Shown here piece by piece: positions 29,529-55,767 of a DNA stretch of 64,000 nucleotides. The translations under genes were made by a program, and so were the position numbers. Location: the IMG/VR virus record IMGVR_UViG_3300043411_002995, positions 1 to 64,000 of that record; one strand, given 5' to 3'. Below the pieces are notes generated by a model. That model worked only from the letters and a program-made list of their open reading frames with translations, made no database searches and was not told the DNA's origin. Within the stretch, counting starts at the first letter, position 1. Each line of letters begins with the position of its first letter. This stretch comes from a virus.

Positions 29529-29562
29529 CGTGACCTCCTAGATCGGGCATAAGGGAGGTGAC

Positions 29563-34628: not shown

Positions 34629-34751
34629 ATGCAGGGATACCGGAAGGAGTGGAAGGGCCCGCGGTGGCCCCTCACCCACACGGGCACGGTGGCGCTGGTG
34701 GTGCTGGTGGTGGTGCTGATCCTGCTGCTGGCTTGGTGGTTGACACCCTGA
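34629..34751 (+). CDS. Small single-span membrane protein
   Basis: A 40-aa protein with a polar N-terminus and one strongly hydrophobic segment (VALVVLVVVLILLLAWW). AGGAG (34617-34621) is seven bases from ATG 34629; an in-frame ATG at 34614 would add five residues. Such peptides in phages include holin-like and membrane-modifying proteins. The lysis genes lie 2 kb downstream. Confidence 0.55.
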   Translation: MQGYRKEWKGPRWPLTHTGTVALVVLVVVLILLLAWWLTP

Positions 34752-34768
34752 GGCCTCGGGCGTAACCA
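34740..34768 (+). promoter_or_regulatory. Promoter with consensus -35, leaderless-type
   Basis: TTGACA (34740-34745, perfect) overlaps the end of the membrane-protein gene. A 17-base spacer leads to TAACCA (34763-34768), a poor -10. ATG 34776 is only seven bases beyond the -10, and no Shine-Dalgarno separates them, so transcription would begin at or beside the start codon. Confidence 0.5.
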
Positions 34769-34775
34769 TCCACGG

Positions 34776-34961
34776 ATGGCAAAGACCGCTGGATCTACGG
34801 ACGCATCTACGGAGGCCGTTCGGAACATCCACGTGGGAGCGCCCGAGAGCTTCCACCGCCGGCTGAAGGTGGCGTGTGCGAAGCGCGGGGTGAAGCTGAA
34901 GGAGTACGTGCTGGCCGCGCTGCAGGAGAAGGTCGAGCGCGACGAGAAGGCCGGCCGGTGA
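34776..34961 (+). CDS. Ribbon-helix-helix-like small regulator
   Basis: A 61-aa protein with a strand (RNIHVGAP) then two helices (FHRRLKVACAKRGVKLKEYVLAALQEKV), the size and pattern of Arc/MetJ-type ribbon-helix-helix DNA-binding proteins, though the family is inferred from pattern alone. It lacks a Shine-Dalgarno and appears to be read from a leaderless transcript. Confidence 0.6.
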   Translation: MAKTAGSTDASTEAVRNIHVGAPESFHRRLKVACAKRGVKLKEYVLAALQEKVERDEKAGR

Positions 34962-35494
34962 GCTGCGCCCGCTGCGGGTCGCAACGCCTCTTCCAGTTCG
35001 AGGCGAGCAAGAGCGCGGTGGTGCCGGAGACGTTGCCGCTGGTCTGCCGCGACTGCGGGCAGATCTCGATCGGTGGCACCGCCGTCCACTTCCCGCCAGC
35101 GATGGAGCAGCACGCCAAGGATCTGGCGGAGCTCGCCGGTGTGGCGGGCAAGGAGGCCAAGGAGGAACTGCTGGCCGATCCGGACCAGCGCATCGAGATC
35201 TACTTCGCGAACGTCTACCGGCGCGCCTACCTCGAGGGGTTCTGGCGCGCCTTGTTGTTCTGGCGCCACAACGGGAAGGAGGGGCGCCTGCGGCGCGTGC
35301 GCGAGCTGTGGGGTGATCATCGCCCCATGGCGCAGCTCGCCGAGAGCGTGCGCATCGCCATCGACCTGCCGAAGACCGCGTATGATGAGCTCCGGCAGCT
35401 GCTCGAGCTCGGAGACCACCATGCCCCGCGTCCTGCGAACGAGCGTCCGTCCCCACCGCCCCGTCGTCCACGAGTGCCGCGACGAACGCGGTGA
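34958..35494 (+). CDS. Zinc-ribbon protein, unknown function
   Basis: A 178-aa protein from GTG 34958 (GTGA overlap). CARCGSQRLF...CRDCGQ makes an N-terminal zinc ribbon. The middle 100 residues are helical with several aromatics, and the tail is Pro/Arg-rich. The tail is the less certain part because 74 bases there overlap the next gene in another frame. Confidence 0.6.
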   Translation: MSCARCGSQRLFQFEASKSAVVPETLPLVCRDCGQISIGGTAVHFPPAMEQHAKDLAELAGVAGKEAKEELLADPDQRIEIYFANVYRRAYLEGFWRALLFWRHNGKEGRLRRVRELWGDHRPMAQLAESVRIAIDLPKTAYDELRQLLELGDHHAPRPANERPSPPPRRPRVPRRTR

Positions 35495-35618
35495 GCGGAT
35501 CCAACGCGAGGGACGTTCCAACACCCGCTGCACGTTCTGCGGCACCCAACTCGTCTACGTGTTCGACAACACGCCCAAGAAGCTGCCAACCGTTCGGAGA
35601 CGCACATGGCCCAGATAG
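35421..35618 (+). CDS. Small basic Cys-containing protein
   Basis: A 65-aa Arg-rich protein from ATG 35421 behind GGAG. HEC...CTFCGTQLVYVF has a CxxC and a strand like half a zinc ribbon. Overlaps the previous gene by 74 bases and the next by 13. A plausible but small gene. Confidence 0.45.
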   Translation: MPRVLRTSVRPHRPVVHECRDERGERIQREGRSNTRCTFCGTQLVYVFDNTPKKLPTVRRRTWPR

Positions 35619-36001
35619 TCGTCCGCAAGTTCACCTGCGATCGCTGCAAGAAGCCCTACAACGAGACCGAGACCGACGCTGCTGTCGACGCCCAGTCGCA
35701 CAAGCCGAAGGTGATCCTCAGCCTCGAGTCGCACATCCCGAACGAGAAGGCGCTGACCTCGCCGGAGGTCGTCAAGTTCGAGGACCTGTGCCCCAAGTGC
35801 CAGGGCCGCGTGCTCGACCTGGTCTACCAGATCCGCCTGGAGAAGGTGGAGACCGAGCCCAAGGCGGAGGCTTCGGTCGGCGATCCGGTGCCGGCGGCCG
35901 CGGACCCCACCGTGAAGGTGGACAAGCCGCCCGAGAAGACGGACAACAAGCAGAAGGGCCCTCGCGCCGGCAGTTCGGCGGAGCCCACCACCCCGCACTG
36001 A
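35606..36001 (+). CDS. Zinc-ribbon protein with disordered tail
   Basis: A 131-aa protein. CDRCKKPYNE at residues 10-19 and CPKCQG near residue 62 form a zinc-ribbon pair around an extended middle. Residues 85-131 are Pro/Lys/Ala-rich and probably disordered. It precedes the 40-residue acidic peptide. Function unknown. Confidence 0.6.
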   Translation: MAQIVVRKFTCDRCKKPYNETETDAAVDAQSHKPKVILSLESHIPNEKALTSPEVVKFEDLCPKCQGRVLDLVYQIRLEKVETEPKAEASVGDPVPAAADPTVKVDKPPEKTDNKQKGPRAGSSAEPTTPH

Positions 36002-36018
36002 ACCGAGGAGAGACCGCG

Positions 36019-36141
<123 letters not shown>

Positions 36142-36168
36142 CCACCCTCACCATCAGCCGCGTACGAC

Positions 36169-36198
36169 GGGGGGCCATGCGCCCCCCTTCGTTTTTTT
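36169..36198 (+). terminator. Strong Rho-independent terminator
   Basis: Perfect stem GGGGGGC-CATGC-GCCCCCC (36169-36187) followed after TTCG by seven T. It ends the unit running from 32409 or from the leaderless promoter at 34740. Confidence 0.85.
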
Positions 36199-36207
36199 AC
36201 CCATCGC

Positions 36208-36240
36208 TTGACAGTCATACCGGGTGTGACTGAGTATGAG
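36208..36240 (+). promoter_or_regulatory. Promoter with consensus -35 after a terminator
   Basis: TTGACA (36208-36213, perfect) lies ten bases after the terminator T tract. An 18-base spacer gives GAGTAT (36232-36237); TATGAG (36235-36240) is a better -10 but 21 bases away. The first ATG (36247) is six bases past TATGAG. The position just behind a terminator favours a real start of transcription. Confidence 0.5.
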
Positions 36241-36246
36241 CGGCAG

Positions 36247-36558
36247 ATGGAAGACCAGCTCTTCGGCGTTCCTGTCACTCGCGACCTGCCGTGCACGCTC
36301 ACCGAGCCCGCGTTGCGCGAGGCCACCGCGCAGAAGGCGGAGATCGAGGACTGCGGCCTGACGATCGTGCGCGTCCACATGGTGGCGCCGGACCAGCCGT
36401 TGCGGTTCTTCATCAAGTTCAAGCCCGGGCAGCCGTCCTTCGCCACGCGGGGCAAGCTCGAGGCGCTCGGATACTCCGTGCGCCAGAAGATGAGCGACAA
36501 GGACCTCTGCTTCTACGCCGTGAAGAGCGTGGTCGAGACCAAGGGCTGGGACGTCTAG
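36247..36558 (+). CDS. Phage protein, unknown function
   Basis: A 103-aa protein with ATG 36247 chosen because it fits the leaderless pattern; GTG 36226 in frame adds seven residues. An acidic N-terminal half (LREATAQKAEIEDCGLTIV) leads to a strand-helix C-terminus with RKLEAL-like basic content and YAVKSVVETKGWDV. First gene of the lysis unit. Not recognised. Confidence 0.55.
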   Translation: MEDQLFGVPVTRDLPCTLTEPALREATAQKAEIEDCGLTIVRVHMVAPDQPLRFFIKFKPGQPSFATRGKLEALGYSVRQKMSDKDLCFYAVKSVVETKGWDV

Positions 36559-36568
36559 GAGCCAACCG

Positions 36569-37450
36569 ATGAACGCAGCGGACTACAACAAGCGCGAGCT
36601 CGAGCAGGGGCGCCTCACCTGGGCGCAACTCGCCGTCCTGTGCGAGTACGCGGACCCGGCGCGGGTGAAGACCAACGTCGCCGGCGGCGCCCTGACCTGG
36701 GCGCGCATCGCCGAGTGCGTCACCACCTTCCAGCGGAAGCGGGGGCTCAACGCCGACGGCATGGCGGGCGAGACCACCCGGGCGCGCATCAAGCTGCCGG
36801 GTGACGCGCTGCCGCCGACCACGGTGGTGCCGGTCCTCTCGATCGAGGACTGCTACAAGCCCTGGGACGGACCGGCGCTGCGCCAGCCGCGCAACCGCAA
36901 GGAGGTCATCGAGATGTTCGGCGACCCCGGGACCGTGGTCGAGAACAAGGCCTGGACCCGCGCCAACCTGGTCGAGTGCCACGAGAAGAACGGCAACCGC
37001 CTGCCGGGCGTGCCGGCGAAGTGGTGGGTCTCGGTGCATCGCGTGGTCGAGCCGTACCTGCGCGAGGCGCTGCGGCGCGTCCAGATCGTGGCCCCCGACT
37101 TCGTCATCGAGGTCCTCGGCTCCCACTGCTGGCGTCCGATCCGGGGCAAGGTCGGCAACCCGCTGTCGCTGCACAGCTGGGCGATCGCCGTCGACCTGAC
37201 CCCGAAGGTCAACCGCGGCATCGACGTGCCCAAGGGCAAGGCGCCGCAGGCGTGGACGCCGGAGTGGGACAAGCTGTTCCCGCCGGACCCGCGCCGCATC
37301 ACCCTGCCGGTGGTGAAGGCCTTCGCGAGCTGCGGCTTCGCGTGGGGCTCGGACTGGGACGAGGACGGCCTCACCACCGACGAGACCTGGCTCGACACCA
37401 TGCACCTCGAGTGGATCGCTCGCGGCAGCAGGATGGCGAACTGGGTATGA
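36569..37450 (+). CDS. M15-family endolysin (L,D/D,D-carboxypeptidase-type)
   Basis: A 293-aa cell-wall hydrolase. Residues about 45-75 (FQRKRGLNADGMAGETTRAR) form a peptidoglycan-binding module. Residues 180-285 hold the VanY/M15 zinc site: LSLHSWAIAVDL gives H202 and D209, and MHLEW gives H279 with E281 nearby. M15 phage enzymes cut the peptide stem of peptidoglycan. The order (binding module first, peptidase second) is common in phage endolysins. No signal peptide, so it would need a holin; none is certain nearby. Confidence 0.85.
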   Translation: MNAADYNKRELEQGRLTWAQLAVLCEYADPARVKTNVAGGALTWARIAECVTTFQRKRGLNADGMAGETTRARIKLPGDALPPTTVVPVLSIEDCYKPWDGPALRQPRNRKEVIEMFGDPGTVVENKAWTRANLVECHEKNGNRLPGVPAKWWVSVHRVVEPYLREALRRVQIVAPDFVIEVLGSHCWRPIRGKVGNPLSLHSWAIAVDLTPKVNRGIDVPKGKAPQAWTPEWDKLFPPDPRRITLPVVKAFASCGFAWGSDWDEDGLTTDETWLDTMHLEWIARGSRMANWV

Positions 37451-37629
37451 GCCGGCCCCGCGGCAAGATCGTGGGTGGCTACGTCCGCCGGACGATCAGC
37501 ATCCCCAAGAAGCTGGACGACGAGCTCGAGGGCCACCTCAAGAGCCGGGACGGGGCGACGCTCTCGGCCGTCATGACCGTCGCCGCACAAGACTTCCTGC
37601 GGGCGCAGAAGCCCAAGAAGGATCGCTGA
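37447..37629 (+). CDS. Small basic ribbon-helix-helix-like protein
   Basis: A 60-aa protein with a strand (YVRRTISIPKKL) then helices (DDELEGHLKSRDGATLSAVMTVAAQDFLRAQ), again the pattern of ribbon-helix-helix DNA-binding proteins. Starts in a 4-base overlap with the endolysin gene. Regulatory role possible; it could also be a structural fragment. Confidence 0.5.
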   Translation: MSRPRGKIVGGYVRRTISIPKKLDDELEGHLKSRDGATLSAVMTVAAQDFLRAQKPKKDR

Positions 37630-38042
37630 TGCCGCTCTACGACTACGAGTGCCCTCACGGCCACCGCTTCGAGCACTTCTCGTCCATCGCCGAGCGCGAG
37701 GCGCCGATCCCGTGCGAGGGGCAGGTCAACCAGCTCGTCATGGACGACCAGGTCGTGGACAAGTACGCCGACGGGACGGAGCCGCTCCCGGACGATCTCG
37801 CCTGGCAGGAGCTGCCGGTGATCGACGAGGCGGCCGGCCAGGAGACCGAGACGGTCAAGATCCTCGTTCGCAAGGTGCCCTGCCAGCTGCAGGCGCGGCT
37901 GATCATCGGGCAGCACAACAACCCCGGCGGCGCGATCTTCCACAACGCCGCCGCCAACCGGGACGCAGCGCGCGAAGGGCGCTACGACCCAGCGAACCCC
38001 AGCCGGCGGTTCGTCACGAAAGGACGCGGATGGCGCAAGTGA
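37629..38042 (+). CDS. FmdB-like zinc-ribbon protein
   Basis: A 137-aa protein starting MPLYDYECPHGHRFEHF, the N-terminal pattern of FmdB/CxxC regulatory-type zinc ribbons, with a later Cys in place of the usual second CxxC. The second half has VPCQLQARLIIGQHN and a basic tail. Start overlaps the previous stop by one base. Function unknown in phages. Confidence 0.65.
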   Translation: MPLYDYECPHGHRFEHFSSIAEREAPIPCEGQVNQLVMDDQVVDKYADGTEPLPDDLAWQELPVIDEAAGQETETVKILVRKVPCQLQARLIIGQHNNPGGAIFHNAAANRDAAREGRYDPANPSRRFVTKGRGWRK

Positions 38043-38224
38043 ACGGAGTCCCGGAGCTTTCTCTCCCCAAGGTCCAGCCGGTCGTCCGCGAGACGGGCGA
38101 GGCTGTCGTAGAGCTGCGGCAGAATGGCCAGCTCGTGGGCGAGATCAACTTCACCAAGATCCTGACGACCTGGGCGCAGCAGCTCGGGCTGATCAGCCGT
38201 CCCAAGCTCAAGTCGGTGCCCTGA
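38030..38224 (+). CDS. Small phage protein, unknown function
   Basis: A 64-aa protein starting at ATG 38030 inside the previous gene. The first 40 residues are strand-like (KVQPVVRETGEAVVELRQNG), the end is a short helix and basic tail. Not recognised. Confidence 0.55.
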   Translation: MAQVNGVPELSLPKVQPVVRETGEAVVELRQNGQLVGEINFTKILTTWAQQLGLISRPKLKSVP

Positions 38225-38403
38225 TGTCGATGGAGAAGTACGGGGTCGCCGACAAGGCGGCCCAGCAGCGCCAGGAGCTCGCCCAGGTGCGGGCGAAGCT
38301 CGGCGCCGCCCGGTCGGGGGAGAAGACCGCCGCCGCCCAGGAGACCATCCTGGCGCTGGAGGCCCGGGAGCGCGAGCTCCGCCAGGCCCTGACCGACCAG
38401 TAG
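38224..38403 (+). CDS. Small helical (coiled-coil) protein
   Basis: A 59-aa protein starting at ATG 38224 in a TGATG overlap, reading MSMEKYGVADKAAQQRQELA and continuing as a Glu/Ala/Arg helix to its end. Likely a coiled coil. Last gene before a 103-base gap with promoter and operator candidates. Confidence 0.55.
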   Translation: MSMEKYGVADKAAQQRQELAQVRAKLGAARSGEKTAAAQETILALEARERELRQALTDQ

Positions 38404-38422
38404 CCTGCCCCGGGCACAAGCC

Positions 38423-38489
38423 TTCTGGAACCCACCAACGCTCTGCACAATGCCGAGCCTTGGTCCGTGACCGCCGAGCTGAGCTCGGC
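38423..38489 (+). promoter_or_regulatory. Weak promoter plus palindrome before the recombination genes
   Basis: TTCTGG (38423-38428), 17-base spacer, CACAAT (38446-38451) is a weak promoter candidate. A perfect palindrome, GCCGAGCT-G-AGCTCGGC (38473-38489), follows, about 15 bases past the predicted start of transcription and 18 bases before GTG 38507. This is where a repressor would block the recombination unit. Confidence 0.35.
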
Positions 38490-38506
38490 AACGGAAAGGA
38501 TGACAC

Positions 38507-40845: not shown

Positions 40846-40851
40846 TAGACT
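40846..40851 (+). promoter_or_regulatory. TAnnnT -10 box six bases before a start codon
   Basis: TAGACT lies between the nuclease stop and ATG 40858 with only CGGGGC between them. No -35 match is present 17-18 bases upstream. It fits the spacing of the other leaderless-type sites but is the weakest of them. Confidence 0.3.
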
Positions 40852-40857
40852 CGGGGC

Positions 40858-41313
40858 ATGTCCACCCGCAGAGAGCAGCTGTTCAGCGCCAAGAAGCCGC
40901 CGCCGGGGTCCGCCATGATCCCGGCGACGGTGCGGTTCCGCCACAACAAGAAGAAGGGGCTGATCGAGCCCCTGGGAGCCCAGGAGAAGATGCTCTGCGC
41001 CCTGCGCAAGGTCTTCGCCGACATGAGCAACAAGGACGAGCGCTGGTGCATCGTCGGCAACCAGGTGCAGATCCTCGGCGCACCGACGACCACCGAAGGC
41101 AAGCCCAAGGGGCCGCAGAGCTACCGCGCGAGCGGGCGCTGCAAGGTGGCGATCATGCGGAGCGACGGGATGACGTCCAAGCTGATCGAGTTCTCGATCA
41201 GCTACAAGGACGTCGTGGACGACCGCGGCCTGGCCGACGTCATCTACTTCGATCCGACGACGGTCGATGAGGTCCCGCGGAACTCGCCCATCGATCGCTC
41301 GATGTTCGCGTAG
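40858..41313 (+). CDS. Phage protein of the recombination unit, unknown function
   Basis: A 151-aa protein starting MSTRREQLFSAKKPPPGSAM. Basic N-terminus, then a helix (EKMLCALRKVFADMSNKDE) and strand-rich region (RCKVAIMRSDGMTSKLIEF). Lies between the nuclease and a strong terminator, suggesting a link to DNA processing. Not recognised. Confidence 0.6.
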   Translation: MSTRREQLFSAKKPPPGSAMIPATVRFRHNKKKGLIEPLGAQEKMLCALRKVFADMSNKDERWCIVGNQVQILGAPTTTEGKPKGPQSYRASGRCKVAIMRSDGMTSKLIEFSISYKDVVDDRGLADVIYFDPTTVDEVPRNSPIDRSMFA

Positions 41314-41335
41314 CCGCGGCGCCGTCTGCGGTGGT

Positions 41336-41371
41336 GGAGAGCCCCTGGTCTCGGGGGCTCTCCTTTTTTTT
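41336..41371 (+). terminator. Strong Rho-independent terminator
   Basis: Stem GGAGAGCCCC (41336-41345) with GGGGCTCTCC (41354-41363), 8-base loop, followed by eight T (41364-41371). Ends the Sak4/nuclease unit. Confidence 0.9.
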
Positions 41372-41400
41372 GGGCACAAGGGATGAAGAAGGAGGTGTCC

Positions 41401-44141: not shown

Positions 44142-44695
44142 TCCCGTTCCTGATCTTCTCCCGCCTGACGTTGTTCCTGACGGCGTTCCAGCTGAGCGCG
44201 TCCATCGCGCCGCTGAAGGACGCGAAGCACCTCTCCCAGGAGGAGCGCTTCGAGTACTCGGTCTACATCGTCGAGGCCGCGCAGCAGCACAAGCTGGACC
44301 CGTACCTGGTCGCCGCCGTCATCTGGCACGAGTCCAGGTTCCAGAAGGACGTGAAGAGCCGCACGCAGGACTACGGGCTCCTGCAGGTCCACTGGCAGAA
44401 GCTCCACCCGCAGCTCGGGGAGGACTGGCTCGTCGGGCTCACGCGCGAGTCGCTGCTGGACCCGCGGACGAACATCTTCGCGGGCACGCGGGAGCTCGCG
44501 CACAACCGGCACCTCTGCCGGCGCCGGCGCCACGACCCGGGGGATCACCCTTGGTGGGCCCACCACAAGTGGGGTAACGTCGTGGGGAACCCCGCGTACG
44601 GACTGGCGATCCAGAAGCGTCACGCGACGCTGATCCGCAACCGGGGGAGGATCTCGAAACCACATCGCAGTCGGGGACCCAAGCCCACGTCGTGA
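44138..44695 (+). CDS. Secreted lytic transglycosylase (SLT/GH23)
   Basis: A 185-aa murein hydrolase that cleaves the MurNAc-GlcNAc bond. Residues 1-24 are a hydrophobic signal or anchor (MIPFLIFSRLTLFLTAFQLS). The SLT domain runs about 38-165, with catalytic Glu in HESRF (E65) and the conserved GLLQ (80-83). The C-terminus is basic. Export by the host Sec system is predicted, so it may act at infection exit or wall remodelling without a holin. Second cell-wall enzyme of the window besides the M15 endolysin. Confidence 0.8.
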   Translation: MIPFLIFSRLTLFLTAFQLSASIAPLKDAKHLSQEERFEYSVYIVEAAQQHKLDPYLVAAVIWHESRFQKDVKSRTQDYGLLQVHWQKLHPQLGEDWLVGLTRESLLDPRTNIFAGTRELAHNRHLCRRRRHDPGDHPWWAHHKWGNVVGNPAYGLAIQKRHATLIRNRGRISKPHRSRGPKPTS

Positions 44696-45150
44696 AGATC
44701 AAACGGAAGCCTAACGTCGAGGAGGTCGAGCGGATCAAGGGGCGCCCCAGTCGCCTCTTGACCGCTCGGTGCCCCGACCTGCGCTCCGTTTTCCCATCGA
44801 CGCCGTGCAAGAACCTCGTCTGCGAGTACGCCGTCCACAACTCGATCTACCTGAACTGCAGCTTCGTCGCCGCGACGGCCGAGGTCGACACCGGGCTCGC
44901 TCTCGCAGACATCGGCGCGATGATGGATCCGCCGATGACCCGCGAGGGCGTCCGGCTCATCGAGCGCGCCGCGTTGAAGAAGCTGAAGGCCGCAGGGCTC
45001 GATGGGCCGGCAGGACAAGCTGATGACCCCGCCCTACGTCAACCGCGTCCACCTGCAAGGGGTGGTGTCGTCTCACCCGATCCTGAAGGCGCTGACCGCC
45101 ACCACGAACTTCACGACGTTCGAGGTGTCGCTGGTCGAAAGCTGGGCTAA
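44692..45150 (+). CDS. Sigma-70 region 4-like DNA-binding protein
   Basis: A 152-aa protein from GTG 44692. PCKNLVCEYAVHNSIYLNC supplies several Cys, and LADIGAMMDPPMTREGVRLI with ERAALKKLK reads as the helix-turn-helix of sigma-70 region 4 (E.IG...G.TRE.VR.IE..AL.KLR). This matches a family of small Cys-bearing region-4 proteins in high-GC bacteria and their phages. It may redirect host RNA polymerase or bind the -35. Residues past about 103 are low-complexity and overlap the next gene by 149 bases; the conserved part ends before that. Confidence 0.65.
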   Translation: MKIKRKPNVEEVERIKGRPSRLLTARCPDLRSVFPSTPCKNLVCEYAVHNSIYLNCSFVAATAEVDTGLALADIGAMMDPPMTREGVRLIERAALKKLKAAGLDGPAGQADDPALRQPRPPARGGVVSPDPEGADRHHELHDVRGVAGRKLG

Positions 45151-46377: not shown

Positions 46378-47240
46378 GTTCCTATCTGGTGCACGACATC
46401 GAGACGATCCCCGAGACCGAACTGCGGAACGAGTGGGAGGCGGACAAGGCCAAGCAGCAGGCGAAGGGTGTGGCGGATCCGTTCCCCGGCATCCCGTACC
46501 ACAGGGTCATCTGCATCGGCATGCTGACCCTCGATGCGAACCTGCACCCGGTCCGCTCGGGGTGTGCCGAGGGCGGCGTGCGTGGCGGCAAGAGCGAGCA
46601 GGAGATGATCGAGAAGTGGGCACAGGTCGCCGCCGGCGGCGCCACCGATCCGCTCCGCCTGGTCGACTGGCACGGCCGCGGCTTCGACGTGCCCGTGATG
46701 CAGACGCGGGCGTTCCGCTACGGCATCCAGCTGCCCTGGTACTTCGGCAAGCTGCCGGACAACCGCGGCCAGATCTCGAGCTTCTCGAAGGACTACCGCG
46801 ATCGCTACGGCGGGTGGCACGAGGACCTGGCGGAGTTCTGGACGAACCGAGGCGCCTTCCCGCGCCCTCACCTGGCGAGCCTCGCCAAGCTGATGGGGCT
46901 GCCCGGCAAGCTCGACGTCGACGGCAGCAACGTCTACGACCTGTGGAAGGAGTACGCGCACGCGAAGGACACGGCCCGGACTGCGGACGGGACGCTCGAG
47001 CAGCACGAGGCGTGGATCGCGTCGGCCGCGGCGATGGGCCAGAAGATCGACACGTACTGCATGCAGGACGTCTTCCAGACCGGGTTCATCCTGCAGCGCT
47101 GTCGGTACATGGTCGGCGAGCTCAGCCTCGAGGCGTACCGTGCGGCGGCGATGGCGCTGCTCGAGCACGTCAAGCGGCAGCCTGAGCAGGAGGACTTCGT
47201 CAAGGGGGTGGACCTTCCCAGGCTCCTGCTGGAGTCGTAG
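46374..47240 (+). CDS. PolB-like DEDD 3'-5' exonuclease
   Basis: A 288-aa stand-alone exonuclease. VHDIETIPE gives D8 and E10, GRGFDVPVM gives D105, and YCMQDV gives Y228 and D232, the DEDDy set; LASLAKLMGLPGK is the typical segment between motifs II and III. It belongs to the predicted PolB-like 3'-5' exonuclease family, not linked here to a polymerase domain. Likely proofreading, trimming or recombination. GTG 46374 start overlaps the nuclease stop. Confidence 0.8.
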   Translation: MSSYLVHDIETIPETELRNEWEADKAKQQAKGVADPFPGIPYHRVICIGMLTLDANLHPVRSGCAEGGVRGGKSEQEMIEKWAQVAAGGATDPLRLVDWHGRGFDVPVMQTRAFRYGIQLPWYFGKLPDNRGQISSFSKDYRDRYGGWHEDLAEFWTNRGAFPRPHLASLAKLMGLPGKLDVDGSNVYDLWKEYAHAKDTARTADGTLEQHEAWIASAAAMGQKIDTYCMQDVFQTGFILQRCRYMVGELSLEAYRAAAMALLEHVKRQPEQEDFVKGVDLPRLLLES

Positions 47241-47243
47241 TAT
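47215..47243 (+). promoter_or_regulatory. Leaderless-type promoter
   Basis: TTCCCA (47215-47220), 17-base spacer, TAGTAT (47238-47243), then six bases and ATG 47250. No Shine-Dalgarno stands before this ATG. It lies across the end of the exonuclease gene. Confidence 0.45.
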
Positions 47244-47249
47244 CAGGCG

Positions 47250-47603
47250 ATGCCCACCCTGACGATCCAAGGCACGATCTCCTTCCCGCTCGGCGCGGAG
47301 GCCACGCCGCCGTCGCGGGCGTTCAAGTTCGAGCTCGTCTACACGGAGAAGGCCGACCACGACTTCGTGTTCACCGGGCCCGAGGTGGGGGTGGATCTGA
47401 TGGGGCACATCGCCGACGCCAAGGCGGTCTACATCGAGGTCCTCTCGGGGGAGATCACCCTCAACATCAACGGCGCCGAGGAGGATCTGCCGATGACCGG
47501 AGATGGTGGGCAGTGGATCTACGGCAACCCGAACGGTGGGTTGACCGCGCTGACGGCGACGTCGACCGACGACGCCCGCCTGCGCGCCTACATCTTCGCC
47601 TGA
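47250..47603 (+). CDS. Beta-rich phage protein, unknown function
   Basis: A 117-aa protein of alternating strands (MPTLTIQGTISFPLGA; VYIEVLSGEITLNING) with few helices, possibly a small beta sandwich as in virion decoration or cell-surface modules. Appears to be made from its own leaderless transcript that stops at the terminator directly behind it, giving a one-gene unit. Confidence 0.6.
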   Translation: MPTLTIQGTISFPLGAEATPPSRAFKFELVYTEKADHDFVFTGPEVGVDLMGHIADAKAVYIEVLSGEITLNINGAEEDLPMTGDGGQWIYGNPNGGLTALTATSTDDARLRAYIFA

Positions 47604-47608
47604 CGGCG

Positions 47609-47633
47609 ATGCCGGCACCGGCCGGCATTTTTT
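47609..47633 (+). terminator. Rho-independent terminator
   Basis: ATGCCGGC-ACCG-GCCGGCAT (47609-47628), a perfect 8-bp stem, followed by five further T. Terminates the one-gene unit at 47250-47603. Confidence 0.85.
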
Positions 47634-47640
47634 AGCTGTC

Positions 47641-47669
47641 TTGACGGAAAGATGCGTGATCGGTACGGT
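47641..47669 (+). promoter_or_regulatory. Leaderless-type promoter
   Basis: TTGACG (47641-47646), 17-base spacer, TACGGT (47664-47669), then five bases and ATG 47675. It starts eight bases after the T tract of the preceding terminator, and there is no Shine-Dalgarno. Confidence 0.6.
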
Positions 47670-47674
47670 TGGGC

Positions 47675-48169
47675 ATGAACCGACTGTTCGACGCCAACGC
47701 CAAGGCGCAGAAGGATGCGGGCGCGCGGCGCTCGCGCGAAGAGGTGCGCCAGCGGGCGGAGGCTGTCGACAAGGCGCTCGCCGAGGCCGGCCTCCTCGAC
47801 GATGCCGACAAGCGCCTCCAGGCGAAGCTCTCGCAGTCCGTGCAGCCGATCGTCTACGCGTCGTTCCGCGTGCCCGGCTCGAAGTGGCGGCTCGAGCACG
47901 CGCGCGCCGGCGACGACTACGTCATCCAGCTGTTCCCGCTGAAGCCGCCGCGGCTGGTCTGGCAGGATGTGGTCCTCGCGATCATCGCGACGATGGACAC
48001 GATCTTCCCGCGCAACATCAAGATCACCTACCGCCCACCGCGCGAGGACTACCAGATCAAGTACTACACCATCACGGTGGAGAAGGTGGTCGGGCAACCC
48101 GGATGGGAACGAGCCTGCAAGGAGCGGGCACTACGTGGCCTCGCCGCGATCGACGTCTGGTCGGAGTAG
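47675..48169 (+). CDS. Phage protein, unknown function
   Basis: A 164-aa protein. Residues 1-50 are charged helix (QKDAGARRSREEVRQRAEAV). Residues 60-135 alternate strands with aromatics (PIVYASFRVPGSKWRLEHAR; IKITYRPPREDYQIKYYTI), and the end is helical. It is the first gene of a short unit with a good promoter. Not recognised. Confidence 0.65.
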   Translation: MNRLFDANAKAQKDAGARRSREEVRQRAEAVDKALAEAGLLDDADKRLQAKLSQSVQPIVYASFRVPGSKWRLEHARAGDDYVIQLFPLKPPRLVWQDVVLAIIATMDTIFPRNIKITYRPPREDYQIKYYTITVEKVVGQPGWERACKERALRGLAAIDVWSE

Positions 48170-48230
48170 CCGACCTCGAGGATGGGGGGTCGAGGTCAAG
48201 TCGGGCCGCCGAGCTCGGTGGACCGCGCTG

Positions 48231-49503: not shown

Positions 49504-49532
49504 CGGCGGGTCTCCTTACCGGAACCGGTCCA

Positions 49533-52358
49533 TCAGACCAGGAGGGTCAGCGTGATGTTGTTGAGGGGCAGCGGCACGCTGATGTCGATGTCGACCTCGA
49601 CGGTGTCCGGCTGCGAGGAGGATTCCTCGATCCGCGACATCTGCCCGCCGCGGAGCGGCGCCCCGACGCGCGGCGCGCGCTGGGACTTGAGGAACTCGAT
49701 GCCGCCCTCGCCGCGGGTCTTCAGGACGTCCATCAGGCCGTCCGTGATGTTGTAGATCCCGAGGAACGGCCGGAACAGCCCGCGGAAGAACCGGGCGATC
49801 AGGTCGACGTTCTTCGTGACCGAGAACTCCTGGAAGTAGATGGTGGAGACGTCGGTGGTGAGCTGGTGGCGGATGCTCAGGGCGGCGTCGACCACCGGCT
49901 GGACGAACACCATGTTGCCGCCGCCGGCGATGGTGTCGAGCTGGGTGTCCGAGAACAGGTCGTCGGAGTGCTCGCGGCCGACGAAGCCGGTCACCGCCAG
50001 GTTGGTCATGCCGGCCTGGCTGGGCAGCCCGGCGGTGAGCCCGGCGATGACCGGCCCAGCGAAGTACCCCGGGACCTTCGTCGCCAGGGCGTTCACCGAG
50101 ATCGCCAGGACGTCGGGCCAGGTGTGGACGCACCGACGCGACGCGAACGACGTCGCGTAGCCGGCGATGAGCTGGGCCTGCTCGGTCAGGCTGAGGTCGC
50201 GGGTGATCCGGTACTCGACGTCCTCGAGCGTGCCGCCGAAGCCGGCCGTCGGGTCGGAGGCCAGGGTGAGCTGGCTCTCCGAGACGATCGCCTCGATCTC
50301 GTGGCGGGTGCCGGTGATGTACGCCTCCTCGTCCGCGGACGGCTCGATCGAGACGATGTCGAGCACGGTCAGCGTGGTGGTGGTGAGGCCGTTGAACTCC
50401 TCGGTCACCGGCACGGTCGTGTTGTCGGTCTTCACCTGGGTGGGCGAGATGACCGTCTCGATCACGTGGTCGTCGTTGTTGGCCCCGTTGGTGGCGCCGG
50501 CGACGCGCAGGACGCGGCCGACGTCGGCCGCCGTGAAGGCCGCGCCGAGGACGGTCCACACCCGCGAGGTGCCGTTGACGCCGTCCGCGTTGACGTCGCG
50601 CCCGGGCTCGCGGTTGATGCCGTAGACGGCCTGGGTGACGCCGCCACCGAAGGTCTCGTTGGCGCCGGGGGCCTCGACCGTCAGCACCGAGGTGGTGCTG
50701 ACGACCGTGCCGATCGTGAACGCGCCGTTGTTGCCGGCGTTGGCGGCGCCGCGCACGAAGAGCAGCTTGCCGACGTCGCCGGCGACGAAGGCCCCGTTGA
50801 CGAACGACCAGGCCTTGGTCGCCGCCACCACCGCGTCCGCGGCGTTGTGGGCGACCTCGCGGTCGAGGTCGCAGATCCACGCTCGCGTGGTCGACAGCAT
50901 GACCTCGGGGGTGTCGGGCTCCGGGTCGACCGTGACGCGCGCGCCGCTGACGATCGTGAGGATCTCGTACTCGACGTCGTTGAGGGCCGTGGTCGCGCCG
51001 TCGACGATGATGAACCGGCCGACGTCGGTGCCGGTGAAGGACGCCGCCGTCATCTGGATCACGTCGGCCGGCGCGTCGTCGAACCAGTCGCGCTCGTTGG
51101 GGGTGACCGAGCGGTGGACGCCCTCGACGGGGAGGTAGTCGGTGATCTCGAGGAAGTACCCGACGCCGACGTCGTCGGTGATGAACTGCCCGTTGGTGGG
51201 GTCCTTGAAGGTCAGGTTGGTCGCACCGCTGGTACCGTTGCCGGTGCCGGCGCTGGTCGCGACGCCGAGGCCGCTGGCCGGCACGACGACCTCGAGCTCG
51301 ACGAGCTTCCGGTTGAAGATGCCGACGCGCTCCTTGCCGACGGTCGACGCCGACATCCCATCGACGTGCGCCTTCACCAGCTGGTGCACCGCGGTGTTGT
51401 GGGTCATCACCGCGATGGCGTAGACGTCCTTGGCCTCGAGGTACTCGAGCGCGTCCTGGAACGCCTGCTCCTCGTCGTCGAGGAAGCCTTCGTCCAGGCC
51501 GACGAAGCTGACCTCGGTGGTCGTGTTCTGGATCGCCAGGTTGACGCCGTAGGCGCCGACGTTGGAGGGGACCACGGCGCCGACGCCGAAGACCGCCTCG
51601 ATCGAGTCGAGGTCGGTGAAGACGGTCAGGGCGTTGGCCAGGTCGGGGCGGATGGCGCGCCACGACAGGACGACGTTGCCCTCGACGACGTCGAGCGGGG
51701 TCGCGTCGGTCACCGACTGGAGGCCCGAGGCGATCTGGACGCCGGTCGCGGTCGGGGTGATGCTGCGGTCGCCGAACGAGGTGACGGGGTAGACCTCCTC
51801 CTCGCGGAACTCGAGCACGCGGTAGACGATGTTCGAGAGGGGCAGGCCTCCGCTCTGCCACTCGGCGGCGACGATCAGCTCGTTGTCGCTGTTCTTGCCG
51901 ATGACGAGCTTCCGCCCGAGGTCCGCGGCGGTGACGCCGCCGCCGGAGATGATGTCGACGTAGAACGTCGGGGCGCCGGCGGCATCGGGGTCGAACGCGG
52001 CGAACGCGTCGGTGGTCACGTCCTGGAAGAGGTTGGGCGTCGCCAGCTTCCCGGTGATGGCCTGCGCCTTCTTCACCAGGTAGGCGTCGGTCAGGGTCAC
52101 GCCGACCGGCTTGTGGGCGTTCGCCTCGGCCTCGGCCTCCGGCACGTCGGAGAGGTCGACGACGGCGCCGGTGGTCAGCCCCGTGTACGGGAAGATGCTG
52201 GTGCCGAGCTCGTCCTCGGAGTAGATCCCCGCCACCACCTCATCGGCGATCTGGAAGCCCGGGGCCACGACGCACACGGGGAGGCTGGGAAGGGACAGCG
52301 AGACGGCGGCATCCTGGAACTCCTGGATGACTTCGATTGCGGGGCGGCGGTAGGCCAT
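49533..52358 (-). CDS. Tail sheath protein with internal repeats
   Basis: A 941-aa contractile tail sheath subunit. The N-terminus (MAYRRPAIEVIQEFQDAAVS) and C-terminal STIYFQEFSVTKNVDLIARF with RPFLGIYNI are sheath-like; the C-terminal domain that forms the interlocking arms is recognisable. It is larger than usual (about 400-700 aa). Residues about 435-690 contain three copies of a roughly 50-80 residue repeat with an FxxxDVGRxLxVxGAxNxxNN core, likely an exterior insertion. AGGAGA lies before ATG 52358. It proves a myovirus-type contractile tail. Confidence 0.85.
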   Translation of the reverse strand: MAYRRPAIEVIQEFQDAAVSLSLPSLPVCVVAPGFQIADEVVAGIYSEDELGTSIFPYTGLTTGAVVDLSDVPEAEAEANAHKPVGVTLTDAYLVKKAQAITGKLATPNLFQDVTTDAFAAFDPDAAGAPTFYVDIISGGGVTAADLGRKLVIGKNSDNELIVAAEWQSGGLPLSNIVYRVLEFREEEVYPVTSFGDRSITPTATGVQIASGLQSVTDATPLDVVEGNVVLSWRAIRPDLANALTVFTDLDSIEAVFGVGAVVPSNVGAYGVNLAIQNTTTEVSFVGLDEGFLDDEEQAFQDALEYLEAKDVYAIAVMTHNTAVHQLVKAHVDGMSASTVGKERVGIFNRKLVELEVVVPASGLGVATSAGTGNGTSGATNLTFKDPTNGQFITDDVGVGYFLEITDYLPVEGVHRSVTPNERDWFDDAPADVIQMTAASFTGTDVGRFIIVDGATTALNDVEYEILTIVSGARVTVDPEPDTPEVMLSTTRAWICDLDREVAHNAADAVVAATKAWSFVNGAFVAGDVGKLLFVRGAANAGNNGAFTIGTVVSTTSVLTVEAPGANETFGGGVTQAVYGINREPGRDVNADGVNGTSRVWTVLGAAFTAADVGRVLRVAGATNGANNDDHVIETVISPTQVKTDNTTVPVTEEFNGLTTTTLTVLDIVSIEPSADEEAYITGTRHEIEAIVSESQLTLASDPTAGFGGTLEDVEYRITRDLSLTEQAQLIAGYATSFASRRCVHTWPDVLAISVNALATKVPGYFAGPVIAGLTAGLPSQAGMTNLAVTGFVGREHSDDLFSDTQLDTIAGGGNMVFVQPVVDAALSIRHQLTTDVSTIYFQEFSVTKNVDLIARFFRGLFRPFLGIYNITDGLMDVLKTRGEGGIEFLKSQRAPRVGAPLRGGQMSRIEESSSQPDTVEVDIDISVPLPLNNITLTLLV

Positions 52359-52382
52359 CGTCGGTTCTCCTGGTCGCGGCGG

Positions 52383-53045
52383 CTACGGGGTGCTTATCCG
52401 GGTGACGACGGTGCGCAGCTTCTGATCGCCTTGCGGCTCGACGCTCCAGCGTCGTTGAACTCTCGCCTGGAAGGCGACGGGAACTACAGAGATCTCGGGT
52501 CGAGCGCCCCCCTTGACGAGGGCCTCTTCGCCCATCTGGGTGGCTTCGATCTTGAAGAAGCCCAGGTGGGAGGCCTGCATGATACCGCGACTGGCCAATT
52601 TCCGCAGGACGTCGCGGAGCGCCTGGAAGGATTCGAACAGGTACCCGGCGATGAGCTCGGCCTCCGCGCCCGACCGCGAGAAGCAGCTCAGGACCATGCT
52701 GCCTGCCACCAGATCCGTGTAGGTTCGCCGATCCGTTCGCAGGTCCAGCGACTGCATCTGGCGGAAGCCGCTCGTCCTCGACCACTGCATCGGCCCGCGG
52801 TTGGCGACGATCGCCGGCGTCGTCCCGACCCGGGCCAGGTTGAAGGCGTACTTGTCGCAGATCGTGATCTGGGTCTTCTCCTCCTCGGGGGACCAGACCA
52901 GGTTCCCGAGCGGGTTGCCCTCGTAGAACAGGAGCTGGGCCACCTCGAGGGCGAACCCCTTGATGACCTCGTGGGGCCAGACGTACCGACGGTCCTCGTC
53001 GTGGAGGCTGCGGGCGTTCTCCTGCTGCACGACCGGCTCGCTCAC
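52383..53045 (-). CDS. Probable tail completion or neck protein
   Basis: A 220-aa protein with an alpha/beta mix (GFALEVAQLLFYEGNPLGNLV) and a C-terminal strand RTVVTRIS. The place between the head connectors and the sheath is where tail terminator and neck proteins occur. No diagnostic motif. Starts with a 4-base overlap to the gene transcribed before it. Confidence 0.55.
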   Translation of the reverse strand: MSEPVVQQENARSLHDEDRRYVWPHEVIKGFALEVAQLLFYEGNPLGNLVWSPEEEKTQITICDKYAFNLARVGTTPAIVANRGPMQWSRTSGFRQMQSLDLRTDRRTYTDLVAGSMVLSCFSRSGAEAELIAGYLFESFQALRDVLRKLASRGIMQASHLGFFKIEATQMGEEALVKGGARPEISVVPVAFQARVQRRWSVEPQGDQKLRTVVTRISTP

Positions 53046-53566
53046 GGGGCACCCGGGTGGCGGCGGTTGACGGTGGCCGTGGCCTGGTCGTAGGCGTCGA
53101 CCACGCCGTTCCGCAGGACGTCCGTCGTGGTCTGCTCCACGACCCGATCCTGCTCCTGCTGCTTCTGCTCACCAAACAGGGCGGCGAGCGAGATCGTGCG
53201 GAAGGTCAGCTTGGTCTCGCCGTCGGCCCCCTGGGCTGCGCTGGGCACCCCGGAGCCGGGCGCGAACAACTCCTCGACCGACCCGGCCTCGTCGCCGAGC
53301 TCGCCGGCGACCATCTCCGAGCTCGCGGCCAGGACCGCGCCCTGGTCCTCGGAGTCGATCACCATCCGGTCACCCTCGCTGGTCACGCGCACCGCCTGGG
53401 CCCGCAGGGCGGCCGCGACGTCGATGCCCGGGTCGATGCGACCACGCAAGCGGGTCTGGAGGTTGCCCGCCAGGATCGTCCGCGCCTCGGCGTCGACCTC
53501 ATCCAGCCGGGCGACGCCGGCGGTGTCCTTCGGGCCGAAGAAGATCCAGTCGTTGAACCCGCTCAC
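53042..53566 (-). CDS. Virion-module protein, unknown function
   Basis: A 174-aa acidic protein (VDAEARTILAGNLQTRLRGR), starting MSGFNDWIFFGPKDTAG. The N-terminal 85 residues may form an alpha/beta connector-like fold; the C-terminal 60 are helical and charged. Translationally coupled to both neighbours by 4-base overlaps. Confidence 0.55.
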   Translation of the reverse strand: MSGFNDWIFFGPKDTAGVARLDEVDAEARTILAGNLQTRLRGRIDPGIDVAAALRAQAVRVTSEGDRMVIDSEDQGAVLAASSEMVAGELGDEAGSVEELFAPGSGVPSAAQGADGETKLTFRTISLAALFGEQKQQEQDRVVEQTTTDVLRNGVVDAYDQATATVNRRHPGAP

Positions 53567-53820
53567 TCACCGCCCCCGCTCTTCGAGGCGTAGTCCACCA
53601 TCTGGTTCGGCGAGGTCAGGGGCGTGGGCGCGCGCTTCGCGGACGCGGGCTTGGGCTGCAGCGGCGCACCGGACTTCAGCCCTGTCTTGGCGTTGGGGCC
53701 CTGGGTCTGGTCCATGACGTCAGCGACGCCGGCGTCGTACGGCGCCGGCGCCTCGTGCTGCTGGGGGAACGCCCCCAGCTTCACGAGCTCGTCCACGAAT
53801 CCACGGAGGTAGGGTCCCAT
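53563..53820 (-). CDS. Small virion-module protein with F-x-DEL motif
   Basis: An 85-aa protein starting MGPYLRGFVDELVKLGAFPQQ; ATG 53820 is chosen so that it overlaps the previous stop. After the FVDELVK motif the chain is Pro/Ala/Lys-rich and probably disordered. The same F-x-DEL start occurs at 48712 and 62516, pointing to a common targeting or assembly signal. Confidence 0.55.
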   Translation of the reverse strand: MGPYLRGFVDELVKLGAFPQQHEAPAPYDAGVADVMDQTQGPNAKTGLKSGAPLQPKPASAKRAPTPLTSPNQMVDYASKSGGGE

Positions 53821-54698
53821 CAGAACATCCGCTCTTCCTTGAGCCGTTCCCATTCTTGCACGACGGCCCGGAGGGTTTCGGCCGGAATGCGCTGGACCAG
53901 CACCTGGTACTCGACCTCGTCACGGCCGACCGCCGAGATCCGGCAGACGTGTTGGATCGTGGTCCCCTGCGGCTGGATCGTGTGGACCTTCGAGACCGCC
54001 CAGAGCGTGCCGGGCATGACCTCGTAGATGATGTCCCCCGGCTTCATCTGGGGGTAGGCCGAGAACCAGCAGTCCTTCTCCTTCTGCTGCATCTCGCCGA
54101 AGCTGGTGATCGACGTCAGCTTCTCGTCGGGGTTGTAGTCGACGTAGAAGGGGATCGGCTCGAAGAACGGGTGCTGCCGACCGGTGTTGAGGCAGAGCGT
54201 GCACCTCGAGGTGGTCTGCCGCTGCATGGTGACGTCCCAGCAGGGGCAACGCGCCGAGTCGGCGGTGCGCTCGATGAAGGCGAAGCTCGGCGTGCCCTGC
54301 AGGTAGCGCAGCACGAAGTCGTGCTGCTCGATGATGCAGAGCTCGTGAGGACGCGGCGAGGTCTCCCAGGTCCGCGTCTCGGAGACGACCTCGCCCTCCG
54401 GCGTCGTCGCCACCACCCGGTAGTAGTACTTCCGCCACCAGCTGATCAGGTTGGGCGTGACGTCGTCGAACTCGTAGACCAGCTGGCGCGCTACGCCTGC
54501 GACCTCGGCCACGAGCTCGACGAACTCGCCGGCGGTGAACTGCGGCGAGAGCGAGCGCTCGACGCGGAAGGTCACCTCCGACAGCCCGCTGTGCTGGGTC
54601 ACCAGCTCCCAGCAGACCATCACGGTCGCGTTCCCATCCGGTGGCGACCCCGGTTGGGCAACGATGATGTCGAGCCGTCGGAAGGCCAGCATGGTCAC
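53820..54698 (-). CDS. Zinc-containing neck or baseplate-type protein
   Basis: A 292-aa protein from GTG 54698 (GTGA overlap; ATG 54692 is an alternative). Residues 1-120 are strand-rich, like a fibronectin-type or tail-attached domain (VTFRVERSLSPQFTAGEFV). CPCWD...CTLCLNTG at about 155-180 is a zinc site, and the rest is alpha/beta. Similar zinc-bearing proteins lie between capsid and sheath genes of large phages. No precise family. Confidence 0.6.
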   Translation of the reverse strand: MTMLAFRRLDIIVAQPGSPPDGNATVMVCWELVTQHSGLSEVTFRVERSLSPQFTAGEFVELVAEVAGVARQLVYEFDDVTPNLISWWRKYYYRVVATTPEGEVVSETRTWETSPRPHELCIIEQHDFVLRYLQGTPSFAFIERTADSARCPCWDVTMQRQTTSRCTLCLNTGRQHPFFEPIPFYVDYNPDEKLTSITSFGEMQQKEKDCWFSAYPQMKPGDIIYEVMPGTLWAVSKVHTIQPQGTTIQHVCRISAVGRDEVEYQVLVQRIPAETLRAVVQEWERLKEERMF

Positions 54699-55171
54699 CA
54701 GAAGTAGTTCAGCAGGGCGTACTCCGACGCCACCCCGCCGGCGAGCGCGTTCATCACGTTGAGGGAGATCTTGTAGTTCGACTTCTTCCGCTCGTACTCG
54801 GCGACGAACTGGGCGATCCAGGCCTGGTAGTTCTGGGTCTTGTCGAAGATCCTCACGGAGACGCCGCCCGAGCTGTACGTGAGCTCGTTGCGCGACTGCA
54901 GGATGCCGGCGCTACGCAGGACCTGGATGGTCGCGCCGTAGATCAGCATGTACAACGACGGGAAGGTCTCGACCCGGTAGGTCGAGATCAACGGCGAGGT
55001 GATGTTGAAGTCGTCCAGGGCCAGCGCGATGGCCAGGTCGAGCTTCGGGTCGTCCGACTCCTGGCGGCGGATGAGCCGGTTGAGCTCGGGCGTGTCGTTC
55101 AGGAACATGCGCAGCAGGCGCCGAGCCTGTTGCTGCGCCCTGTCTGCCGCCGTTCCGGTAGTCGTTGCCAC
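54695..55171 (-). CDS. Probable head-tail connector protein
   Basis: A 158-aa, mainly helical protein (RAQQQARRLLRMFLNDTPELNR; SRNELTYSSGGVSVRI) with an ending YALLNYFW. Length and gene position, two genes after the major capsid protein, fit an adaptor or connector. The Gly-Gly-Val strand in the middle is typical of small neck proteins, but identification is by context only. Confidence 0.55.
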   Translation of the reverse strand: MATTTGTAADRAQQQARRLLRMFLNDTPELNRLIRRQESDDPKLDLAIALALDDFNITSPLISTYRVETFPSLYMLIYGATIQVLRSAGILQSRNELTYSSGGVSVRIFDKTQNYQAWIAQFVAEYERKKSNYKISLNVMNALAGGVASEYALLNYFW

Positions 55172-55199
55172 GGGCTACTCCCGGCGTCGCCGGGGACGC

Positions 55200-55730
55200 C
55201 TAGTTCTTCTTGCCGACGCGGAGGTTGTCATGGAACCCGGCGACCGCGGCGATCGGCGTCGGCCGCGGGTCCACGAGATCCTCGAGCTTGCCCTTGGCCA
55301 CGTCGGCCTTGGTGACCGACGGGATGTCCAGGTCGTCCTCGTCGTCCGAGGACGCCGCCAGGACCTCGGCCTCGCTGGCGTCCTCGTCGTCGGCCCCCGC
55401 GGCGCGCAGCGGCACGACCTTCGACGACTTCCGCTTGTCGACCGTGACCAGCGTCGCGCGCTCCGTCGACGGCGCCGCCTTGGGGCGCGGCGCGTCGTCG
55501 TCGTCCTTGTCGACGACCTTCGCCTTCTTCGGCGGGACGTAGGGCGGGAACGCCCCCTCCTCGACCTTCAGGTCGAGGCAGTCGACGAGCTCGGAGGTTC
55601 CCTTGTCGAGCCGGTTGATCGGCGCGGCATCTCCTGGCTGGAGCAACCGACCCGCCTCCGTGAGGAAGATCGGCCGCGCGTGGGCGGGCCCACGATCAGC
55701 GGAGGTGTTGGTGACCCTGTACTTGTACAT
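55200..55730 (-). CDS. Virion-module protein with acidic disordered middle
   Basis: A 176-aa protein. Residues 1-65 form a small strand-rich domain (MYKYRVTNTSADRGPAHARP), then a Lys/Asp/Glu-rich low-complexity stretch with KDDDDAP and DDEDASEAE, then a short basic end. No Shine-Dalgarno precedes ATG 55730; instead a TAnnnT box lies seven bases before it, so a leaderless transcript is predicted. Confidence 0.6.
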   Translation of the reverse strand: MYKYRVTNTSADRGPAHARPIFLTEAGRLLQPGDAAPINRLDKGTSELVDCLDLKVEEGAFPPYVPPKKAKVVDKDDDDAPRPKAAPSTERATLVTVDKRKSSKVVPLRAAGADDEDASEAEVLAASSDDEDDLDIPSVTKADVAKGKLEDLVDPRPTPIAAVAGFHDNLRVGKKN

Positions 55731-55737
55731 GCCTGAA

Positions 55738-55767
55738 ACGGTAAGCCCGCGCAGGCGCCCTGGTCAA
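55738..55767 (-). promoter_or_regulatory. Leaderless-type promoter behind the capsid gene
   Basis: Read leftward: TTGACC (55767-55762), 18-base spacer, TACCGT (55743-55738), then seven bases and ATG 55730. The spacer is occupied by the inner part of the hairpin at 55745-55782, so the two elements overlap. Confidence 0.55.

What the first reader, a model, noticed from the sequence alone, without database searches (positions are those of the whole stretch)
34740..55767. A class of leaderless-type promoters in this phage
At 34776, 36247, 40858, 47250, 47675 (plus) and 55730 (minus) the start codon lies 5-7 bases after a -10-like box (TAACCA, TATGAG, TAGACT, TAGTAT, TACGGT, TACCGT), four with TTGACN or a related -35 at 17-18 bases. 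None has a clear Shine-Dalgarno, while most other genes do. Three directly follow terminators or gene ends. TAnnnT plus leaderless starts are known in actinobacteria and Deinococcus, so this may also hint at the host.
Basis: partly seen in the sequence, partly recalled or inferred. Interest (0 to 1): 0.75.

Follow-up and report, generated by a model that had tools for sequence, protein, structure and literature searches.

The report
Leaderless promoters in an RNAP-carrying phage
About nine genes of this uncultured, GC-rich tailed phage start almost exactly where transcription should start, so their messages have no ribosome-binding leader; the arrangement is kept in related phages, so it is real, although it is a known kind of gene start, and the phage also carries its own bacterial-type RNA polymerase with a second, different promoter-like motif.

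Summary
The six sites exist as described, with small errors: the 36247 spacer is 21, not 17-18, and two boxes are not TAnnnT. That null is wrong for coding DNA. Measured at gene starts, the box-to-start distances 5, 6 and 7 stand out (27 of 484 starts in seven related records, 9 expected, P=1e-6). The decisive evidence is evolutionary. In relatives of 51-64% GC, 9 of 11 ortholog starts of the TAnnnT genes keep the arrangement, against 6 of 168 for other genes (Fisher 6e-10). One further gene (76825, minus, outside the window) has it in all seven records. Shine-Dalgarno strength at these genes is background level. So they are probably real leaderless or near-leaderless promoters: one subclass with a TTGAC -35 box, one with only a GTAnnnT box and weaker support where the box overlaps a stop codon. 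The host hint is unspecific: the phage SSB is closest to Myxococcota. 5' ends are unmapped. New members of a known kind. Found on the way: a fused beta-beta' RNA polymerase and a strictly strand-polar motif, GGCATAAG (GGTATAAG in Salmonella phage Arash), probably that polymerase's promoter.

The parts
34740..34778 (+). Promoter and start of gene 34776-34961 (61 aa, ribbon-helix-helix-like): TTGACA 34740-34745, N17, TAACCA 34763-34768, N7, ATG 34776
   Evidence: ortholog in G007 has TTGACA-N17-TAGGCA with ATGs 4 and 7 nt on; weak RHH_10 and Arc-like hits below cut-off
36169..36194 (+). Intrinsic terminator before gene 36247
36208..36249 (+). Promoter and start of gene 36247-36558: TTGACA 36208-36213, N21, TATGAG 36235-36240 (or GAGTAT at N18), N6, ATG 36247
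   Evidence: TTGACA and GAGTATGAGCGGC conserved in G007, also after a T-tract; exact -10 uncertain
40846..40860 (+). TAGACT box 40846-40851 directly after the stop of the upstream gene, N6, ATG 40858 (gene 40858-41313); no -35
   Evidence: TAGACT-N7-ATG in G007, there well clear of the upstream stop codon
47238..47252 (+). TAGTAT box 47238-47243 overlapping the upstream TAG stop, N6, ATG 47250 (gene 47250-47603); no -35
   Evidence: G007 has TAGAAT-N6-ATG separate from its stop codon
47608..47633 (+). Intrinsic terminator before gene 47675
47641..47677 (+). Promoter and start of gene 47675-48169: TTGACG 47641-47646, N17, TACGGT 47664-47669, N5, ATG 47675
   Evidence: G007 has TTGACG-N17-TAGGTT-N6-ATG after a T-tract
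55728..55767 (-). Promoter and start of gene 55200-55730: TTGACC 55767-55762, N18, TACCGT 55743-55738, N7, ATG 55730
   Evidence: kept in G004 (TTGACC-N18-TACCGT-N7-ATG) and G007 (TTGACG-N18-TAACGT-N5-ATG)

Best explanation
These are genuine promoters of the primary-sigma (sigma70/SigA) type whose -10 element lies against the reading frame, so that transcription should begin at, or within 0-2 nt of, the A or G of the start codon. The mRNAs are then leaderless and would be translated by direct recognition of the 5'-terminal AUG/GUG, without a Shine-Dalgarno sequence. Shown here: box position, lack of SD, conservation of box, spacing and start codon among relatives, terminators in front of two of them. 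Inferred: the actual 5' ends, use of the host holoenzyme, and the translation mode. Subclass A (34776, 36247, 47675, 55730 minus) has a TTGAC -35 box. Subclass B (40858, 47250; outside the window 70037, 76825 minus, 77917) has only a GTAnnnT box, often at an upstream stop codon, and probably gives extra transcription of single genes inside operons. About 6% of the genes are of this kind; most of the rest have an SD. The arrangement probably reflects a host whose ribosomes handle leaderless mRNA well: distant Salmonella phage Arash, which shares portal, terminase and RNA polymerase with this phage, does not show it.
For: Positional peak at box-to-start distance 5-7 (27 vs 9 expected; 21 vs 8.4 without stop-codon boxes). 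Ortholog conservation 9/11 vs 6/168, Fisher 6e-10; G007 alone 5/6 vs 1/67. 70037 four-way (TACACT/TAGACT x3), 55730 three-way, 76825(-) seven-way with the box changing (TACGAT, TAGGAT, TACTAT, TAAGAT, TAGTAT) while T, A, T and the 5-7 nt spacing stay. TTGAC-N17-19-TAnnnT 6 vs 0.55 expected. SD strength equals background at these genes. Terminators before 36247 and 47675. Arash: distances 5, 6, 7 hold 4, 0, 0 of 202 genes, no peak.
Against: No mapped 5' ends. The naive genome-wide count is below shuffled expectation. Subclass B lacks a -35 and at 47250 and 77917 the box contains the upstream stop codon, so part of its constancy could come from tandem gene spacing and translational coupling. 77917 is confirmed in G004, not found by the automatic scan in G007 (a TAGTAT-N6-ATG is visible there by eye) and absent in G005. 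34776 and 36247 do not fit TAnnnT strictly. Start codons are from a home-made caller, not from proteomics.
Confidence: 0.78

Rival explanations
1. Subclass B boxes are not promoters. The genes are internal operon genes translated by coupling or re-initiation from the upstream stop codon, and TAGnnT arises from TAG stops at a preferred gene spacing.
For: 40858, 47250 and 77917 start 9-12 nt after the upstream gene, have no -35, and 6 of the 27 hits sit on stop codons.
Against: In G007 the boxes of 40858 and 47250 are kept although the stop codon is elsewhere. 70037 and 76825(-) have upstream gaps of 57 and 98 nt. The peak persists without stop-codon boxes. Tandem genes at the same spacing that have an SD instead (TAGGAG...) lack the final T.
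Confidence: 0.3
2. Chance: TAnnnT near RTG is expected at this frequency and the reader picked examples.
For: Genome-wide TAnnnT-N5-7-RTG is not enriched: 7 vs 15.7.
Against: The count ignores gene starts. Positional peak and ortholog conservation (Fisher 6e-10) exclude it for the set as a whole.
Confidence: 0.04
3. The promoters are read by the phage's own beta-beta' RNA polymerase (with the small sigma-region-4-like protein at 44692-45150) instead of by the host holoenzyme.
For: The phage encodes a complete catalytic beta-beta'; subclass B lacks a host-like -35 and has its own consensus GTAnnnT.
Against: TTGAC/TAnnnT is the generic primary-sigma consensus. A different motif, GGCATAAG, is the better candidate for the phage enzyme, because it is shared with Arash, which has the polymerase, while the leaderless class is not.
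Confidence: 0.15

Closest known systems
TA-led leaderless genes of bacteria (Zheng et al. 2011, PMC3160421)
   Same: TANNNT about 10-12 bp upstream of the start codon, no SD, GC-rich genomes, transcription-related genes over-represented.
   Different: Described for chromosomes, at 19-39% of genes in Actinobacteria and Deinococcus-Thermus; here a phage with about 6%, and several sites keep a TTGAC -35.
-10 motif adjacent to open reading frames in Deinococcus-Thermus (PMC12340547)
   Same: -10 box with strict spacing to the start codon giving leaderless mRNA.
   Different: That is an experimentally tested chromosomal pattern; here sequence and conservation only.
Phage leaderless mRNA, classically lambda cI from PRM
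   Same: A phage gene whose transcript starts at the AUG; one of the genes here (34776) also encodes a likely small DNA-binding regulator.
   Different: Here a set of genes, mostly of unknown function, not one lysogeny repressor.
Salmonella phage Arash and Vibrio phages D69, D181, D148
   Same: Share portal (30-32%) and the beta-beta' RNA polymerase (30-34%); Arash also shares the terminase (25%) and a strand-polar GGTATAAG motif.
   Different: Polymerase is split in two genes there and fused in one here; no leaderless peak in Arash.

Membership tests
TA-led leaderless genes | TANNNT box ending 5-7 nt before the start codon, more often than at other distances | tested here: met
TA-led leaderless genes | No functional Shine-Dalgarno | tested here: met
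   as a set not different from random sequence (P=0.5), weaker than other genes (P=0.02); 40858, 47250 and 77917 have GGAG/GGGG-like runs at unfavourable spacing
TA-led leaderless genes | Conserved at orthologous starts | tested here: met
   9/11 vs 6/168
TA-led leaderless genes | Transcript 5' end at the start codon | not testable with these tools
   no transcriptome of this uncultured phage
Primary-sigma (sigma70/SigA) promoters | TTGACN -35 with a 16-19 nt spacer | tested here: inconclusive
   met at 34776, 47675, 55730; doubtful at 36247; not met at 40858, 47250, 70037, 76825, 77917
mReC, RNAP-encoding Caudovirales (PMC7481178) | beta and beta' encoded as two subunits; major capsid protein of PF07068 | tested here: not met
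   single 2097-aa beta-beta' fusion; the 94%-conserved capsid candidate 55815-56711 hits PF05065 only weakly
Arash/D69-like RNAP phages | Homologous portal and beta-beta' RNAP (Arash also terminase) | tested here: met
   protein identities only 25-34%, so a distant relation
Actinobacteriophage or Deinococcus phage (host hint) | Sequence kinship to phages or genes of those hosts | tested here: not met
   no DNA match to known phages; terminase not found in bacterial genomes; SSB closest to Myxococcota

The most novel reading that the evidence does not exclude
The phage uses two promoter languages in parallel. A strand-polar GG[CT]ATAAG promoter drives leadered early genes and is read by its own virion-type beta-beta' RNA polymerase. 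A host-type set of leaderless promoters serves a few genes on both strands, and is adapted to a host that translates leaderless mRNA. The first is inherited with the polymerase (shared with Arash); the second is host-dependent and absent from Arash.
Probability: 0.4. Interest if true: 0.72.

Novelty: new member of a known kind. Interest (0 to 1): 0.45.

Why it matters
Leaderless phage genes are usually discussed as single cases such as lambda cI. Here a set of them can be followed through relatives of 51-68% GC, which makes start-codon annotation better and gives phage-borne test sequences for leaderless initiation. Together with the phage RNA polymerase and the GG[CT]ATAAG motif it offers a testable division of labour between host and phage transcription in a little-studied phage group, with a cultured member (Arash) at hand for the GG[CT]ATAAG part.

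Tried and rejected
Relatives by the 47675 and 55730 proteins directly: none found; the terminase found seven contigs, of which G001 is a fragment identical to part of G007 and was left out of counts. Host through terminase in bacterial genomes: none. A first automatic gene call of this record was wrong (96 genes, trained on antisense frames) and was replaced by the 142-gene set. Sigma54-like reading of GGCATAAG: rejected, spacing does not fit (by inspection). GGCATAAG as a -35 element of the 76825(-) leaderless promoter: rejected, its distance to the box varies between records. The AlphaFold model of the 76825(-) product was poor (pLDDT 43), so no fold search. The generic promoter scan found no site in these regions because it requires 9 of 12 consensus matches.

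Full report
WHAT THE WINDOW IS. The window is bases 1-64000 of a 111,705-base linear viral record (G000), 68% GC. It has no DNA match to known phages. A home-made codon-usage caller gives 142 genes: the left half is on the plus strand (primase-helicase, helicase, Sak4-like, exonuclease), most of the right half on the minus strand (capsid candidate, portal, terminase), with small plus-strand islands. The terminase led to seven related contigs, which I fetched: G007 (56% GC), G004 (51%), G002 (62%), G005 (57%), G003 (64%), G006 (62%); G001 is identical to part of G007. Orthologs are mostly 30-75% identical in protein, so neutral DNA should be largely scrambled.

THE OBSERVATION. All six sites are in the sequence. 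Corrections: the 36247 spacer is 21, only 18 if GAGTAT is the -10; TAACCA and TATGAG are not TAnnnT; at 47250 the TAG of the box is the upstream stop codon. Terminators before 36247 and 47675 are confirmed.

IS IT MORE THAN CHANCE? Coding DNA avoids TA, so this null says little about gene starts. TTGAC-N17-19-TAnnnT, in contrast, occurs 6 times vs 0.55 expected; apart from the two leaderless ones most lie 29-91 nt upstream of a called start and look like ordinary leadered promoters. At called starts, chosen without looking upstream, the box-to-start distance in this record peaks at 5, 6 and 7 (1, 2, 3 genes). Pooled over seven records and 484 genes the counts are 5, 17, 5, against a mean of 3.0 at distances 12-54 (P=1e-6). 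Without boxes lying on an upstream stop codon, 21 vs 8.4 (P=2e-4).

CONSERVATION. Side-by-side upstream sequences show the boxes, the spacing and often the -35 preserved. Counted automatically, 9 of 11 ortholog starts of the six strict TAnnnT genes keep TAnnnT-N5-7-RTG, against 6 of 168 for all other genes (Fisher 6e-10). Four of those six are one more gene, whose start my caller had misplaced: in this record it starts at GTG 76825 (minus) behind TACGAT-N6, and all seven records have a box there (TACGAT, TAGGAT x3, TACTAT, TAAGAT, TAGTAT). Two further genes outside the window belong here: 70037 (four-way) and 77917. The two non-strict sites also have support: 34776 keeps TTGACA-N17-TANNCA in G007, and 36247 keeps TTGACA and GAGTATGAGCGGC after a T-tract.

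ANATOMY. Consensus of 23 strict sites: T A [G>C] n [A>C,G] T, with G directly before the box in 15 of the 16 rows where that base was tallied, 5-7 nt (mostly 6) to ATG (17) or GTG (6). Subclass A (34776, 36247, 47675, 55730) has TTGAC. Subclass B (40858, 47250, 70037, 76825, 77917) has none, and three of its members lie 9-12 nt behind an upstream gene. SD energy in the leaderless set equals random sequence (P=0.5) and is weaker than in other genes (median -3.9 vs -6.5, P=0.02).

MECHANISM. From general knowledge of primary-sigma promoters, transcription starts 6-9 nt after the -10 box, i.e. at the start codon here. The ribosome would then bind the 5'-terminal AUG or GUG directly. The transcription start and the translation step are inferred; box, spacing, conservation and absence of SD are shown. 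Proteins: 34776 is weakly ribbon-helix-helix-like, below the curated cut-off; the others have no family.

HOST. The pointer to actinobacteria or Deinococcus is not specific. Zheng et al. (PMC3160421) list leaderless genes in delta-Proteobacteria (8 of 33 genomes, mean 15.8%) and Acidobacteria (13.3%). The phage SSB (outside the window) is closest to Myxococcota SSBs (67% to a Kofleriaceae MAG with ordinary-looking chromosomal neighbours).

WHAT ELSE TRANSCRIBES THIS PHAGE. The 2097-aa protein at record 79574-85867 (minus) is a fused beta-beta' RNA polymerase with the NADFDGD motif. Relatives in known phages are Vibrio phages D69/D181/D148 and Salmonella phage Arash (30-34%, split in two genes). 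In Arash the beta protein is the most-detected virion protein by mass spectrometry (PMC10585845). The 8-mer GGCATAAG occurs 40 times on one strand and 0 on the other in the seven records, always opposite to the terminase, and 41 of 44 GG[CT]ATAAG sites are outside called genes. In Arash GGTATAAG is 30 to 1 with the same polarity, with none of the 30 early-strand sites inside genes and about half of them 17-61 nt upstream of an early-strand start. It is the most strand-biased 8-mer in both. I take it for the promoter of the phage polymerase, as a hypothesis. Arash shows no leaderless peak, so the leaderless set does not travel with the polymerase, which favours host-type transcription for it.

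VERDICT. Real, probably leaderless, of a known kind; the two-promoter picture is the more interesting possibility.

Noticed in passing
record 79574-85867 minus (L043:577-6867), outside the window: 2097-aa fused bacterial-type RNA polymerase beta-beta' with NADFDGD motif, conserved 54-61% in relatives; in distant phage Arash the homologue is the most-detected virion protein.
   Followed up: partly
window 22200-22207 and 29546-29553; record 69057, 69519, 76863, 85880, 86224, 93274, 94285; 40 exact sites in seven records: GGCATAAG, strictly on the strand opposite to the terminase (40:0), 41/44 GG[CT]ATAAG sites outside called genes; Arash has GGTATAAG 30:1 with the same polarity. Candidate promoter of the phage RNA polymerase.
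   Followed up: partly
window 44692-45150 plus: Small Cys-rich protein with a sigma70 region 4-like segment (E=0.011 here, 8.9e-8 in the G007 ortholog): possible phage sigma-like factor or regulator.
   Followed up: partly
record 76825 minus, outside the window: Unannotated leaderless GTG start (TACGAT-N6-GTG) of a late-region gene, kept in all seven records.
   Followed up: yes
record 102412-103100 minus and 107841-108266 minus: Near-leaderless starts: -10 box 12-13 nt before the ATG, conserved in relatives; predicted leader of about 5-7 nt.
   Followed up: partly
early-strand terminators, e.g. window 47608-47635; G007 and Arash: T-tracts of terminators are often followed by AG (TTTTTTAG 25:1 by strand in the seven records; CTTTTTAG 17:0 in Arash).
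   Followed up: no
record 76924-77370 plus, outside the window: SSB gene behind a GGCATAAG site, closest to Myxococcota chromosomal SSBs (67%): possible host hint.
   Followed up: partly
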